A stretch of DNA of 17,537 nt from the NCBI GenBank assembly GCA_027011025.1, contig JALVAU010000471.1, forward strand, positions 1-17,537, in the 5' to 3' direction. The translations under genes were made by a program, and so were the position numbers. How positions within the stretch are numbered: the stretch's first letter is position 1; the number at the start of each line of letters is the position of its first letter. The DNA comes from Campylobacteraceae bacterium. GTDB taxonomy: Bacteria; Campylobacterota; Campylobacteria; Campylobacterales; Sulfurospirillaceae. Positions 2,798 through 10,690 of the stretch are shown piece after piece. Under the pieces are notes generated by a model. It made no database searches. It saw only the letters and a program-made list of their open reading frames with translations, and was not told where the DNA came from.

Positions 2798-4311
2798 TTT
2801 GTCTCTATCTTTATAGTATTTGTTTTGACACTCTTAAATTTTATGTTTTTTAAGAAATTCATTTTTCCTAAACCGCTATTCCAAACATCTTCACATGTAG
2901 TTTTCCCGTCATTTAGGATTGTGGATAGAAAACTCAATAGATTGACTGCTTCTAGATTTTTATCTATTTTGCAAGAACTAAATTGTATGAAGTTATCGCA
3001 ATTTATGAAGCAACCCTCTCTGCTCATATGAGAGACTGTTGGAATAACAATATCTAGTTTGTCTTTTTGTTTAAAATCTCTATAATTCATCACACCAACA
3101 GATCCTTCAAACCCTAGATTTTCTATGGTTTCTACATCATCTCTGCCAACTAGCAAGACAAAATCTTTATCTTTTATCTGCTCTTTCAAACTATCTATAT
3201 CATCTTTAATTTCTAGATAGGCAAAAGCTTTTCTATTTGGTGTTTTGTCGCTTTTTCTTAGCATATCATCTTCAAAATTTTCATCAAAATTTTCATCAAA
3301 ACCGCTAATTTGCGCACCTAATTTTTGAGATAGGACTTTAAATCTATATATCTCTTCAAGACTTAGAGTAGGCGACAATAAAAACAGAGTTTTAGAGTTG
3401 TATCTCTTTAGTAATCTCTCCATTTTTAAGAGTGCGTACTCAAATTCACTCTCCATACCTCTTATGTAGGCGTTCAAGAGTCTATTTTCATTCTCTTTTT
3501 TATAACTAAGCCTACCATAATCACATATAAAATAGCCATTTATATCTTTGTTAAATCTCGGTCTGTACCTATATACGACATCATCTTTGTATTTTTCTTT
3601 ATTATGATCTACGAATAAGGAGCAACCTCTTGAGCAACCATCACAGATGGCTTCAAGGGGTTTTAGGAACCAAACTCTTTGGTGAAATCTAAAATCCTTG
3701 CTTGTCAAAGCACCCACAGGGCACAAATCTATAACATTCATAGCATAAGGGTTTGATAATTTTGTACCGGGAAATGTAGAGATATATGAGTGGTCATTGC
3801 GAACTACAACACCTAACTCATGAGTTTTTGTGATATTTTTAGTAAATCTGACACATCTAGTGCACAGCACACATCTTTCCCTGTCGAGCATAACATTTGC
3901 TCCTAGGTCTATATGTTTCTTTTTTCTGTTTTTGGGAGTATCTAACCTACTGTCATATAGTCCAACATCCATGTAGTAGTTTTGCAAGGAACACTCACCG
4001 GCTTGGTCACAAATAGGACAATCAACAGGATGATTTATGAGTTCAAGTTCGAGTATTTGTCTTTTTACACGAGCTATGTTTTCACCCTTGGTTCGAATTA
4101 CCATCCCATCAGTTACCGGTGTATCACAAGCTATCTGTGGTCTTTTTTTGCCCTCTATCTCTACCATGCACATACGACAGTTTCCATCTTTGCCCAAAGA
4201 GGGATGATAGCAAAAATGTGGGATATTTACTCCATTTGCTAATAACTCATCTATGAGTGTAGCATCATCTTTTGCATAAATCTCTTTTCCATCAACCGTG
4301 ATTGTTGCCAT
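2794..4311 (-). CDS. nuoG: NADH-quinone oxidoreductase subunit G, short form
   Basis: This is the Fe-S subunit of the complex I electron-input arm. Visible ligands are: [2Fe-2S] Cys34, Cys45, Cys48, Cys62; an His94-Cys98-Cys101-Cys107 site; a [4Fe-4S] set Cys147, Cys150, Cys153, Cys197; and a further Cys223-x2-Cys226-x3-Cys230-x32-Cys263 set matching the N7-type cluster of some bacterial NuoG proteins. The molybdopterin-oxidoreductase-like part that normally follows is reduced to about 240 residues, giving 505 aa against roughly 800-900 in many NuoG proteins. The end is real: the stop overlaps the nuoH start. A 12-bp tandem repeat near 3272-3301 encodes repeated FDEN. It is the first gene of this cluster, with an AAGG Shine-Dalgarno at 4323-4326 on the minus strand. 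Confidence 0.95.
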   Translation of the reverse strand: MATITVDGKEIYAKDDATLIDELLANGVNIPHFCYHPSLGKDGNCRMCMVEIEGKKRPQIACDTPVTDGMVIRTKGENIARVKRQILELELINHPVDCPICDQAGECSLQNYYMDVGLYDSRLDTPKNRKKKHIDLGANVMLDRERCVLCTRCVRFTKNITKTHELGVVVRNDHSYISTFPGTKLSNPYAMNVIDLCPVGALTSKDFRFHQRVWFLKPLEAICDGCSRGCSLFVDHNKEKYKDDVVYRYRPRFNKDINGYFICDYGRLSYKKENENRLLNAYIRGMESEFEYALLKMERLLKRYNSKTLFLLSPTLSLEEIYRFKVLSQKLGAQISGFDENFDENFEDDMLRKSDKTPNRKAFAYLEIKDDIDSLKEQIKDKDFVLLVGRDDVETIENLGFEGSVGVMNYRDFKQKDKLDIVIPTVSHMSREGCFINCDNFIQFSSCKIDKNLEAVNLLSFLSTILNDGKTTCEDVWNSGLGKMNFLKNIKFKSVKTNTIKIETK

Positions 4312-4340
4312 CAGTTATAAAGCCTTATTTGTTTTATAGT

Positions 4341-4346
4341 ATTCTA
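4341..4346 (-). promoter_or_regulatory. Possible -10 box for the nuoG operon
   Basis: On the minus strand a TAGAAT hexamer (one mismatch to TATAAT) lies about 30 bp before the nuoG ATG, in an AT-rich leader. No -35 box is obvious, as is usual in Campylobacterota. A TATAAA-like stretch slightly closer to the gene could serve instead. The inference rests on nuoG being the first gene of the operon and on a divergent neighbour. Confidence 0.3.
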
Positions 4347-4431
4347 TCTAGCCAAAACTTTAAAGTAGCTGTACAATTTATGATAAAATTTTATATTGGT
4401 TATGTTTAAAATATTTATAGGATTTTTAGAT

Positions 4432-4473
4432 ATGCCCTATAGAAAAAATTATGCTCGTATCTCTAACAAATAA
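4432..4473 (+). CDS. Possible 13-codon small ORF upstream of the MFS gene
   Basis: ATG at 4432 opens 13 codons (MPYRKNYARISNK) ending in TAA at 4471. An AGGA stretch at 4419-4422 lies 9 nt before the ATG. It sits wholly in the 231-bp gap between nuoG and the MFS gene. It could be a tiny leader peptide, a decayed coding remnant or chance. The MFS -10 box lies downstream of it, so the two need not share a transcript. Confidence 0.15.
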   Translation: MPYRKNYARISNK

Positions 4474-4509
4474 CTCTTTATGTTCAGGATTTTAGTGGTT
4501 AATATCTAG

Positions 4510-4537
4510 TATAATCCCTAAAGTAAAAAAAAGAGGA
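4510..4537 (+). promoter_or_regulatory. -10 box and Shine-Dalgarno of the MFS gene
   Basis: A perfect TATAAT at 4510-4515 is followed by an A-rich leader with AGAGGA at 4532-4537, five bases before the ATG at 4543. No convincing -35 hexamer is seen 16-18 bp upstream. The rest of the nuoG-MFS gap (4312-4509) is AT-rich and shows no other recognisable element beyond those listed. Confidence 0.55.
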
Positions 4538-4542
4538 AATAT

Positions 4543-5715
4543 ATGTTTAGAAATATCTTCAAATCTCGCGTTGCTCTTTTGTATATACTATCTGTCTCCA
4601 TGATATTTTCTTTTTCAGCTTGGATGTCTCTTTTGAATAACTTTGTTGTTGAAGTCGCAAAATTTAACGGAAGTCAGATAGGATTTTTGCAAAGTATTAG
4701 AGAGATACCGGGGTTTTTGTCTTTTGGTGTGATATTTGTTCTGTTTTTTGTTTCACAGCAAAGATTGGCATATGTATCTATGATTGCTCTAGGTATCGGA
4801 GTTGCCTTCACAGGTCTCTTTCCTAGTACCACAGGGCTCTATGTAACCACTCTTATCATGTCTCTTGGATTTCACTATCTTGCTACGATAAATCAATCTT
4901 TATCATTGCAATGGCTAGACAAAAAGACAAGCCCTGTAACACTTGGTAAAATCGCAGCAGCAAACTCTTTTACTAAACTGTTAGTTTTTGTATTGATATT
5001 TTTTATGATGAAATTTTATAGTGTTGAGTATAAAAGTGTATATCTGATTTTTGGTGGCATCACGATTGTCTTGGGAATTTTATCATGGACTCTTTTTGAG
5101 CACTTTAAAGATGATGTGCCGCAAGAAAATAAACTGAAACTCAAAAAGGAGTATTGGCTATTTTATGTTCTAACTTTTTTTGCAGGTGCTAGACGGCAGA
5201 TATTTATAGTCTTTGCTAGCTTTTTACTTGTTGAAAAGTTTGGTGTTCATATAGAGAGTATGGTTATTCTTCTCTTTGTAAACTCTATACTAAATATATA
5301 TTTAGCACCAAAAATAGGAAAATACATAGTAAGATTTGGCGAGAGATTGGCCCTTAGAATTGAGTATATAGGTTTGATTATCATCTTTACATCATATGCT
5401 TTTGTGAGTGATGTGTATGTGGCATACCTCTTATATATATCTGATCATCTGCTTTTTTCTATGGCAATTGCCCTTAAAACTTATTTTCAAAAGATAGCAA
5501 ATCCAAAAGATTTGGCAAGTGCGAGTGCCATCAGTTTTACTATAAATCATATAGCAGCCGTATTTCTACCTGTGATTTTAGGTATCATCTGGCTCAAATC
5601 AAATGCCTTGGTTTTCGCTATAGGCACACTTATAGCAGTTTGTTCACTTATTTTGTCATTTTTGATTCCAAAAAATCCTAGAGTAGGAAATGAAACGATA
5701 CTCTCTAGGGTATAG
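4543..5715 (+). CDS. Major facilitator superfamily (MFS) transporter, substrate unknown
   Basis: This 390-residue protein is almost entirely hydrophobic, with about 12 predicted membrane helices in two halves separated by a charged cytoplasmic loop near residues 190-205 (FEHFKDDVPQENKLKLKKEY). Length and layout are typical of MFS secondary carriers, which move small solutes across the inner membrane using ion gradients. Partial family features include the GSQIGFLQSIREIPGFLSFG region (about 43-62) and GARRQIFIVFASFLLVEKFG at the start of the second half. The sequence gives no clear substrate. It is transcribed divergently from nuoG and has its own TATAAT and AGAGGA signals. The ORF is complete. 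Confidence 0.85.
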   Translation: MFRNIFKSRVALLYILSVSMIFSFSAWMSLLNNFVVEVAKFNGSQIGFLQSIREIPGFLSFGVIFVLFFVSQQRLAYVSMIALGIGVAFTGLFPSTTGLYVTTLIMSLGFHYLATINQSLSLQWLDKKTSPVTLGKIAAANSFTKLLVFVLIFFMMKFYSVEYKSVYLIFGGITIVLGILSWTLFEHFKDDVPQENKLKLKKEYWLFYVLTFFAGARRQIFIVFASFLLVEKFGVHIESMVILLFVNSILNIYLAPKIGKYIVRFGERLALRIEYIGLIIIFTSYAFVSDVYVAYLLYISDHLLFSMAIALKTYFQKIANPKDLASASAISFTINHIAAVFLPVILGIIWLKSNALVFAIGTLIAVCSLILSFLIPKNPRVGNETILSRV

Positions 5716-8215: not shown

Positions 8216-9514
8216 TTATAAAATCATCATTACTATATCCAAAAGATTATTGTGTGTAGGATTTGTTTTTATAAGCCCACCTTTTTTGGAAAAATAGATA
8301 TTTGAATTAAAATCGTTTAAATACCTCTGTATTATAGCAGAATCTACATCTATTTTTTCATCTGTTTCTATTATAGCTCCTGCGGCATCGCTATTTCCAT
8401 CAATTCCATCTGTCGCAGCACTTAAAAAAGTAACTTTTAATTTGTTGTTACAATATTTTAGAAAAGTAAGTGCCAAGTGCTGATTTCTCCCTCCAATACC
8501 GTCTTTTTTTATATCTACCGTACACTCACCGCCAAATAAAAAACAACACCTTTTCTTACTGTTTTGTTTAGCAAAATTATACAATTTTTCGGCTTCATAT
8601 CTCACCTCTTTACTTAATGTTTCTTGAACTATTTTAGTCTTTATATGGGGAGTTAAAATCTTTTTTGCTTTTTCCAAAACCATCTTATTTGATCCAACAA
8701 CTATATGCTTTAGAAGTGGATTTTTGTTTTTAGGACTCTCTTCGTGTCTGTTTTGCACACCCTCTTTTAAAAAGAGTTGAACACTTTTTGGTATTTTATC
8801 AAAAATTTGATACTCTTTTAGAGAGTTTAAGGCGTCTAGGGATGTTGTATTGTCATGGTATAGCGGTGCTGAGCCTATACTTTGGAGATCATCTCCTATG
8901 ACATCGCTTAGTACAAGTACTATACCTTTTGATTTTAAGTTTTTGATTAATTTTCCACCTTTTATGGCTGAGATATGTTTTCTTACACAATTTATCTTCT
9001 CTATTGGCATTGCATTTTTTAACATTAACTCTGTTGTCTTTTGCAACTCTTTTAGTGTGATATTTGTTTCAGGTATCTCAAGTAGTGAAGATGTACCCCC
9101 GCCTAGCAAATATATAAAGAAGTCATCTTTAGAAAGGCTATCTAGTCTGTTTTGGATTAATTTTGCTGAAATTATGCTGATTTTTGATGGTATGGGATGT
9201 GAGCTTTGGATGTATATTGTATCTTTTAGAGTGATATTTTTTTCATAAGCACCTACTAGTAGAGTATCCTTAATTCTGTTACCAAGAAGATTTTGTATAG
9301 ATTTTGCCATAGGAAGTACGGCTTTGCCAGAACCTAATAGATGGATATTTTTAAACTTACTTAAATCAAAAGTAGAATTTTGAATTTTCAAGATATTGTC
9401 ATCGAAACTGCACTGTTTATGTAGAAGATTTTGTGGTGTTATCTCTTTCAAAAGAGTTTCAAAAGCATTTAAAAGTAGTTGTCTGTCTGTCATGAAAGCA
9501 GAGGGATAAATCAA
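8216..9514 (-). CDS. Glycerate 2-kinase (MOFRL family), TTG start
   Basis: Members of this family phosphorylate D-glycerate, usually to 2-phosphoglycerate. Visible motifs are GSGKA (61-65, with the Lys thought to be in the active site), SSHPIPS (104-110), GGGTSSLLE (138-146), KHISAIKGGKL (179-189) and LSDVIGDD (202-209). The MOFRL domain has GGRNQH (341-346), ATDGIDGNSDAAGA (367-380) and T-x-PT-x-NNLLDI near the end. At 432 aa the length is normal. I chose TTG at 9514-9512 because GAGGGG lies just upstream of it and because it overlaps the selenoprotein stop (TTGA). The next candidate, ATG at 9493 (residue 8), has no Shine-Dalgarno nearby. Confidence 0.93.
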   Translation of the reverse strand: MIYPSAFMTDRQLLLNAFETLLKEITPQNLLHKQCSFDDNILKIQNSTFDLSKFKNIHLLGSGKAVLPMAKSIQNLLGNRIKDTLLVGAYEKNITLKDTIYIQSSHPIPSKISIISAKLIQNRLDSLSKDDFFIYLLGGGTSSLLEIPETNITLKELQKTTELMLKNAMPIEKINCVRKHISAIKGGKLIKNLKSKGIVLVLSDVIGDDLQSIGSAPLYHDNTTSLDALNSLKEYQIFDKIPKSVQLFLKEGVQNRHEESPKNKNPLLKHIVVGSNKMVLEKAKKILTPHIKTKIVQETLSKEVRYEAEKLYNFAKQNSKKRCCFLFGGECTVDIKKDGIGGRNQHLALTFLKYCNNKLKVTFLSAATDGIDGNSDAAGAIIETDEKIDVDSAIIQRYLNDFNSNIYFSKKGGLIKTNPTHNNLLDIVMMIL

Positions 9515-9523
9515 TACCCCTCT
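9500..9523 (-). promoter_or_regulatory. Hairpin that can occlude the glycerate kinase start region
   Basis: On the minus strand AGAGGG (9523-9518), part of the Shine-Dalgarno of the kinase gene, is perfectly complementary to CCCTCT (9505-9500). The TTG start lies inside the 12-base loop. Six base pairs, four of them G-C, would compete with ribosome binding unless ribosomes translating the upstream selenoprotein gene open it. This is read from complementarity alone. Confidence 0.35.
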
Positions 9524-9756
9524 TTTTTTATAAGTTTTACCAACTCTCTTGGTTCTGGAAATCTCTCCACAAAAGTTGCAACTTTGTAGAGTTTTGAAAA
9601 GATTAACTTTCCGTTTAAACTCACTTCAAAAGCACCTCGCTCACCTGGCTTTAGTGTCACTTTCGCATCTCTATATACCGATTTTATCTCCTCTTCCGCA
9701 CGGGAAGCTTTTGGTAAATAGTTTCAAATAACACAGTATTCTATAACTATATCCAT
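9511..9756 (-). CDS. SelW/Rdx-type selenoprotein (CxxU), UGA read as selenocysteine
   Basis: Reading from ATG 9756-9754 gives MDIVIEYCVI, then an in-frame TGA at codon 11 (9726-9724), then NYLPKASRAEEEIKSVYRD and onward, for 81 residues if TGA is read as Sec. The result is a full SelT/SelW/SelH (Rdx) protein: the C8-V-I-U11 redox motif after the first beta strand, then LKPGERGAFEVSLNGKLIFSK (about 36-56) and RFPEPRELVKLIKK near the C-terminus. These are thioredoxin-fold redox proteins of the cytoplasm, with exact substrates unknown. AAGG lies 10 nt before this ATG; an in-frame ATG at 9765 is only 1 nt from it, so 9756 is preferred. The gene starts 1 bp after the DUF2333-like stop. Its own TGA stop overlaps the TTG of the glycerate kinase gene. 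A SECIS-like hairpin follows the Sec codon. Confidence 0.92.
9693..9707 (-). promoter_or_regulatory. Candidate bacterial SECIS hairpin of the selenoprotein gene
   Basis: On the minus strand, 16 nt after the in-frame TGA, CTTCC and GGAAG form a perfect 5-bp stem around the loop CGTGC, which contains a GU. Bacterial SECIS elements lie inside the coding region just downstream of UGA, with a short stem and a small G-containing apical loop that SelB binds. Position and loop fit that pattern. CC/GG pairs further out could lengthen the stem across an internal loop. The coding sequence is not broken by it. Confidence 0.65.
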
Positions 9757-9757
9757 A

Positions 9758-10690
9758 CTATCCATTCCTTAATTTATCTCTTAATTCTGCCATCTTTTGT
9801 GAAATCAAACTAGCATCTTTTACAAGTTTTGAGAGATGCCCAAGAGATTCGAGCACAACTATATGGTTTTGTGCGATAGCTTGTTTCAGCAACTCCATCA
9901 TAGGTTTAAAATTCTCTTCATAAGAGGTTTTATCTATCATTTTGTTTTTAAAATCAAAATCTATACCTTTTAGTATATAGTACATCGCTATCAAGTTGCC
10001 TTTTATACGATAAAATTTGTCGTCTTGAGTTGTAAATTTTGTTTTTAACATCAAGTTTGTTTGCAGTTGTTGCTTAAGTCTATCTAGTGCAACAGCTAGA
10101 TTGTCTGAGTTAACAATAAAGACAGCTCTTTTTTTGCTCATATTTTTGTTTTGATCCTCTTTTAGCTGTTGTAGATAAATATCTATATTTGCTACGGCTT
10201 CTTTGACTCTTGTGCTATAGCTTGTAAACATAGGGATTCTAAAATCAGCATATACATCGGAACGAGCTTGGACTATATGTTCATTTGCCCCACCTGTTCC
10301 TCTATTTCTAGCCAGATTATTTTCAAGAGTGTATAGACCTATACGATACATCTCAATTTCACCGACTTGCTCATAGTATTTGTTGTCTATCCAAGTCCTC
10401 ACCCCTACAAAATTTGTCACCAAGCCCTCATCTAAGAGATGTTGCAAGCCACTCTTTAGAGCATCTGTTGTAGTAAGACCTACAAGTTTTGGATAGGTTT
10501 TTATGACAGGAGTTTTATCTGTAGTTACACTATAAAATGGTGCTACGATAAGACTGATAGGGAAAAACCATAACACAAATGCTATAATCGCTAAAATGAT
10601 AAGCAGAAAAAATCTTTTGAAAAATATCCCCCACTCTTTATAATCCAATATGTAAGATATAATCTTTTTTTCTTCTACTGTTTTATTCAT
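9758..10690 (-). CDS. DUF2333-like membrane-anchored protein of unknown function
   Basis: This 310-residue protein has a charged cytoplasmic N-terminus, one strong membrane helix (about 27-50) and a long, mostly helical extracytoplasmic domain. Recognisable stretches include KTPVIKTYPKLVGLTTTDALKSGLQHLLDEG, then NFVGVRTWIDNKYYEQVGEIEMYRIGLYTLENNLARNRGTGGAN, then a FRIPMFTSYSTRVKEAVANIDIYLQQL segment. From memory this resembles the uncharacterised DUF2333 family. The family name is a recollection, not a search result. It lies 7 bp after dppF and 1 bp before the selenoprotein gene. No signal peptidase site or catalytic motif is visible. Confidence 0.65.
   Translation of the reverse strand: MNKTVEEKKIISYILDYKEWGIFFKRFFLLIILAIIAFVLWFFPISLIVAPFYSVTTDKTPVIKTYPKLVGLTTTDALKSGLQHLLDEGLVTNFVGVRTWIDNKYYEQVGEIEMYRIGLYTLENNLARNRGTGGANEHIVQARSDVYADFRIPMFTSYSTRVKEAVANIDIYLQQLKEDQNKNMSKKRAVFIVNSDNLAVALDRLKQQLQTNLMLKTKFTTQDDKFYRIKGNLIAMYYILKGIDFDFKNKMIDKTSYEENFKPMMELLKQAIAQNHIVVLESLGHLSKLVKDASLISQKMAELRDKLRNG

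What the first reader, a model, noticed from the sequence alone, without database searches (positions are those of the whole stretch)
9511..9756. A SelW/Rdx selenoprotein gene hidden by an in-frame TGA
The sequence shows an 81-codon frame interrupted only by TGA at codon 11, exactly where the second redox Cys of the CxxC/CxxU motif of the SelT/SelW/SelH family belongs (C-V-I-U). The rest of the family signature (GERGAFEVSLNGKLIFSK, FPEPRELV) follows in the same frame. A hairpin sits at SECIS distance, there is a Shine-Dalgarno before the ATG, and both ends fit the operon within 1 bp or by overlap. Standard gene callers would skip it or call a pseudogene.
Basis: partly seen in the sequence, partly recalled or inferred. 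Interest (0 to 1): 0.8.

Follow-up and report, generated by a model that had tools for sequence, protein, structure and literature searches.

The report
Ordinary SelW selenoprotein gene, really there
A small gene that looks broken by a stop codon is really a selenoprotein W gene in which that stop codon most likely codes for the rare amino acid selenocysteine; the same gene is already known in related bacteria, so this is a sound but ordinary find.

Summary
Window 9756-9511 (minus strand) is an 81-codon gene with one in-frame TGA at codon 11. The product matches Pfam Rdx (6.2e-20) and NCBIfam SelTWH_Campy (1e-25). The codon is TGA in 22 of 22 matches found in 41 related genomes; 72 of 74 matches in 200 genomes of the phylum hold one in-frame TGA. 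A 5-bp hairpin 16 nt after the TGA is kept through compensatory changes and is missing in the two cysteine-bearing homologues checked, as expected of a bacterial SECIS. The genome has tRNA-Sec(UCA) and a selD that itself holds an in-frame TGA. selA and selB were not found in this draft; a close relative's selAB segment falls between the ends of two of its contigs, so an assembly gap is likely. SelW with such a SECIS was reported in Epsilonproteobacteria in 2015, and full-length Campylobacter jejuni SelW was supported by Ribo-seq and proteomics in 2025.

The parts
9511..9756 (-). selW: 81 codons with in-frame TGA (Sec) at codon 11; Rdx / SelTWH_Campy family
9724..9726 (-). TGA read as selenocysteine (second position of the CxxU motif, C-V-I-U)
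   Evidence: same codon TGA in 22 of 22 relatives
9693..9707 (-). SECIS-type hairpin: stem 9707-9703 with 9697-9693, loop CGUGC 9702-9698
   Evidence: 5 of 5 pairs in 22 of 22 relatives; covariation 0.365 against 0.168 in shuffles
9766..9770 (-). AAGGA, Shine-Dalgarno-like, 9 bases before the ATG
   Evidence: read from the sequence; not tested
9758..10690 (-). upstream gene, DUF2333; its tail stands directly before selW in 9 of 9 same-genus genomes that have selW
   Evidence: Pfam PF10095 3.8e-12; upstream sequences
8216..9493 (-). downstream gene, DUF4147 + MOFRL (glycerate kinase type, name recalled), with the more likely ATG start at 9493; a neighbour, not part of selW
   Evidence: Pfam PF13660 and PF05161; start judged from L048

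Best explanation
It is the selW gene of a bacterium of the Campylobacterota (the named near relatives are Campylobacteraceae or Campylobacterota drafts). The ribosome starts at the ATG at 9756; at codon 11 the hairpin just downstream holds SelB with Sec-tRNA(UCA), so UGA is read as selenocysteine and the 81-residue protein is completed. The product is a small Rdx (thioredoxin-like) oxidoreductase whose Cys8 and Sec11 can form a selenenylsulfide and probably reduce or sense oxidised thiols. Shown by computation: family, conservation of the UGA, covarying hairpin, tRNA-Sec and selD in the genome. Inferred: real Sec insertion in this organism, selA and selB in the assembly gap. Recalled from family knowledge and not tested: fold, redox chemistry and role.
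For: Family matches. TGA at the same codon in 22 of 22 relatives, one in-frame TGA in 72 of 74 matches in the phylum, TGA in 12 of 13 genome-contig loci and TGC in one. Hairpin: all five pairs in 22 of 22 relatives, 3 of 5 pairs with changes on both sides, five pairs in 30 of 30 fetched phylum loci and, with other bases, in 4 of 4 Sec homologues from other phyla; 0 and 2 of 5 pairs in the two Cys homologues. Machinery: tRNA-Sec, selD with TGA. selA match in 70 of 72 SelW genomes of the phylum sample against 87 of the other 128.
Against: selA and selB were not found in this genome; that they lie in a gap is inferred from one relative (where 40 of 185 candidates were scored). G005 has selW and selB but no selA match, unexplained. 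The hairpin is no more stable than shuffles. The first selW copy of G136 does not pair at the fixed distance (2 of 5). The shuffle and co-occurrence tests do not correct for kinship.
Confidence: 0.95

Rival explanations
1. A pseudogene: the TGA is a true stop and the gene is decaying.
For: selA and selB were not found in this draft; one genome without a selA match, G113, does hold a broken copy.
Against: The rest of the frame is intact and the same TGA is kept in 22 of 22 relatives without further stops; the stem is kept by paired changes; tRNA-Sec and selD are present.
Confidence: 0.02
2. TGA codes for tryptophan here (genetic code 4), as several database proteins print it.
For: 8 of the 12 proteins fetched show W at this position.
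Against: 7 of the 18 window genes I chose end in TGA and their tryptophans are TGG, 53 in all; homologues with a sense codon have Cys there (L017, G185); tRNA-Sec with anticodon TCA is present. The W records look like code-4 gene calls (inference).
Confidence: 0.01
3. A sequencing or assembly error for TGC or TGT.
For: The window is from a draft of 494 contigs.
Against: Separate genomes have the same TGA, some at 93-95% identity, and the hairpin that goes with Sec is present.
Confidence: 0.01

Closest known systems
SelW of Epsilonproteobacteria (PMC4607533, Genome Biol Evol 2015; passages and section 13 read)
   Same: Same family and Sec-encoding TGA, genes often missed in annotation, 5/6-bp apical hairpin after the TGA with an invariant guanosine in the loop
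   Different: This genus was not seen named in the passages read; the gene stands behind DUF2333 here
Campylobacter jejuni SelW on CJnc60 (PMC11955535, Nat Commun 2025; passages read)
   Same: 80-81 aa SelW that needs UGA decoding; full-length translation supported by Ribo-seq and proteomics
   Different: Experimental support exists there and not here
NCBIfam NF041051 SelTWH_Campy and TIGR02174 CXXU_selWTH; Pfam PF10262 Rdx
   Same: The protein matches all three, and NF041051 above its cut-off when C stands for Sec
   Different: Nothing beyond ordinary divergence
SelW-like selenoprotein family (PMC1794560, Genome Biol 2006; passages read)
   Same: Listed as a bacterial selenoprotein family with few Cys homologues in Sec-containing organisms
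   Different: The named SelW-like members in the passages read are from other groups

Membership tests
SelT/SelW/SelH (Rdx) family | Match to the family profiles | tested here: met
   Pfam Rdx 6.2e-20 over residues 3-78; NF041051 1e-25 and TIGR02174 4.9e-17
SelT/SelW/SelH (Rdx) family | CxxC or CxxU motif near the N-terminus | tested here: met
   C8-V-I-U11 with TGA read as Sec
SelT/SelW/SelH (Rdx) family | Thioredoxin-like fold | not tested
   No structure was predicted; sequence matches to solved Rdx chains only
Bacterial selenoprotein gene | In-frame TGA conserved among relatives, Cys in some homologues | tested here: met
   22 of 22 relatives; 72 of 74 matches in the phylum; Cys in L017 and in one G185 copy
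Bacterial selenoprotein gene | SECIS hairpin shortly after the TGA with G in the loop | tested here: met
   5 of 5 pairs in 22 of 22 relatives and covariation; no dedicated SECIS predictor was available
Bacterial Sec-decoding trait | tRNA-Sec (selC) and selD | tested here: met
   RF01852 53.7 bits, anticodon TCA; selD 357.9 bits
Bacterial Sec-decoding trait | selA and selB | tested here: inconclusive
   No selA match, selB only under the cut-off; the relative's selAB segment lies between two contig ends of this draft
Bacterial selenoprotein gene | Selenium in the protein | not testable with these tools
   Needs 75Se labelling or mass spectrometry

The most novel reading that the evidence does not exclude
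In this genus SelW is tied to the genes beside it: it stands directly behind DUF2333 in all 9 same-genus genomes in which it was found, and in one relative (G008) its frame runs without a stop into the downstream DUF4147/MOFRL kinase, which would make a selenocysteine-bearing two-domain protein of 462 residues and would hint that SelW serves a partner encoded next to it.
Probability: 0.05. Interest if true: 0.4.

Novelty: new member of a known kind. Interest (0 to 1): 0.17.

Why it matters
It supports by comparison a small gene that gene calls cut or misread, and it gives a clean set of sequences in which an RNA hairpin can be seen to shape the protein: residues after the Sec change in pairs so that the stem is kept. 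What bacterial SelW does is, to my knowledge, still open (recalled). As a discovery it adds little in kind, because SelW selenoproteins in this phylum are already in print and in NCBIfam.

Tried and rejected
Rejected: pseudogene, code-4 tryptophan and sequencing error (see rivals). Folding energy was dropped as evidence because shuffles fold about as well. The open frame was dropped as evidence by itself. The Rfam scan of the window gave nothing at gathering score. The plasmid search found two distant places, at 35 and 40% identity. The possible SelW-kinase fusion of G008 was followed: a protein search with its first 85 residues gave one hit among 195 candidates, a 449-aa protein that begins after the TGA, on a contig of 26,534 bases, the length of the G008 contig, so most likely the same record. 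One literature search on bacterial SelW, SECIS and Rdx brought a listing of 20 of 638 papers and none was opened from it. No structure was predicted, since the family is clear.

Limits of the counts. The phylum sample is 200 genomes drawn evenly from a larger group, and matches lie in 10 of 47 genera. That the TGA stands at the same codon was seen for fetched loci only; for the others I have the count of in-frame stops. Pairing was checked in fetched loci: 22 of 22, the 30 best of 74 matches, and seven genome-contig loci plus the G136 and G185 copies. The first G136 copy pairs at 2 of 5 positions at the fixed distance; it seems one codon longer there, and a similar hairpin is visible three bases further on (by eye). 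Genome handles for one search were copied by hand; the set sizes agree with their tallies.

Full report
What is there. On the minus strand, 9756-9511 encodes 81 residues with one in-frame TGA at codon 11 and a TGA stop at 9513-9511. With C standing for Sec the protein matches Pfam Rdx at 6.2e-20, NCBIfam SelTWH_Campy NF041051 at 1e-25 and TIGR02174 at 4.9e-17, and solved Rdx chains at best 6.1e-7. A frame with one TGA of this length is not rare by itself: the window has 15, real genes ending in TGA included, and 500 base shuffles have 2.7 on average and at most 10. The claim rests on homology, not on the open frame.

The codon. Of 41 whole genomes (this one and 40 relatives) 22 have a match to NF041051, and each match has exactly one in-frame stop, a TGA; in all 22 it is the fourth codon of the Cys-x-x-TGA motif. 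Of 200 genomes of the phylum 72 have a match, 74 matches in all, and 72 of the 74 contain one TGA. The two exceptions are a cysteine copy in G185, which stands in tandem with a TGA copy, and a remnant in G113 whose frame is shifted upstream of the codon. Of 13 loci from genome contigs 12 have TGA and one, L017, has TGC.

The hairpin. A 5-bp stem, 9707-9703 with 9697-9693 and loop CGUGC, begins after 16 nucleotides from the UGA. All five pairs form in 22 of 22 relatives. On the 20 distinct rows 100% of cells pair (shuffles 91.0%), 3 of 5 pairs have changes on both sides, and the covariation score is 0.365 against 0.168 in shuffles and at most 0.188 when the partner is slid. Residues change with the pairs: in L058 Thr and Val take the places of Ser and Glu, in L056 Phe and Lys do, so the constraint seems to lie on the RNA. 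All five pairs also form in 30 of 30 fetched phylum loci and, with other bases, in 4 of 4 Sec homologues from other phyla (L012-L015); the two Cys homologues form 2 and 0 of 5 (L017 and G185). The first of two G136 copies forms 2 of 5 at this distance. Folding energy is unremarkable.

The machinery. The genome has a tRNA-Sec with anticodon TCA and a selD of 357.9 bits which itself holds a TGA, in the context AGUAAKLAPG; it follows a gene that I take for yedF (name recalled). There is no selA match, and the selB search found four matches under the cut-off, best 186.8 bits, which by length and score are other translation GTPases (inference). In the close relative G004 selA and selB stand at L064 5942-7279 and 7276-9111. 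L064 1-3502 matches contig C18 of this genome up to its last base (4350), and L064 from 10940 on matches contig C22 up to its last base (4314). The segment with selAB thus corresponds to a gap between two contig ends; that call scored 40 of 185 candidates. In the phylum sample 157 of 200 genomes have a selA match; 70 of the 72 SelW genomes are among them, the others being this one and G113, against 87 of the other 128 (Fisher 1.9e-7, not corrected for kinship). Among the 41 relatives 20 of 22 SelW genomes have a selA match, some of them partial; the others are this one and G005, where selB is present, no selA was found and a helicase-like gene lies beside selB. G005 stays unexplained.

Surroundings. 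The upstream gene is DUF2333; before it come genes of a peptide-type ABC transporter (named from memory, except the solute-binding protein, Pfam SBP_bac_5). The tail of the upstream gene stands directly before selW in 9 of 9 same-genus genomes with selW, and the single-contig genome G009 has the same transporter genes and the 310-aa gene in the same order. Downstream genes vary. The kinase-type gene downstream more likely starts at the ATG 9493-9491 than at the TTG 9514-9512, since L048 has an in-frame stop two codons after the TTG.

How databases treat it. Of 24 proteins found with SelW 12 were fetched: 8 carry W at the Sec position and 4 begin after it. So the remark that gene callers mishandle such genes holds in this sample, although NCBIfam has a model for the family.

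What is known. PMC4607533 reports SelW genes in Epsilonproteobacteria, some wholly missed in annotation, with a common 5/6-bp hairpin (passages and section 13 read); it also reports that no optimal SECIS was found for one putative SelW of Campylobacter fetus. PMC11955535 reports Ribo-seq and proteomic support for full-length C. jejuni SelW (passages read). PMC1794560 lists SelW-like among bacterial selenoprotein families (passages read). The find is therefore a new member of a known kind. Its redox role is inferred from the family, recalled and not tested.

Noticed in passing
L057 (G008 contig C11), 346-1731 minus: SelW reads without a stop into the downstream kinase, 462 residues with TGA as Sec; no ATG, GTG or TTG was seen in frame at the junction. 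One draft genome only, so an assembly error is possible.
   Followed up: partly
L106 (G185) and L107 (G136): Tandem selW copies: in G185 the first has Cys and no stem and the second has TGA and the stem; in G136 both have TGA. A natural Sec/Cys pair.
   Followed up: partly
L105 (G113): A genome without a selA match holds a selW remnant whose frame is shifted upstream of the TGA, as expected after loss of Sec use.
   Followed up: partly
G005 contig C4 (L066): selB and selW are present but no selA match was found; a helicase-like gene stands beside selB.
   Followed up: partly
proteins P0003, P0004, P0005, P0009, P0020, P0021, P0025, P0026: Public protein sets print W at the Sec position, which looks like gene calls made with genetic code 4.
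   Followed up: partly
L068 (G000 contig C200), TGA within 4100-5159: selD of the same genome is itself a TGA-containing (selenoprotein-type) selD.
   Followed up: partly
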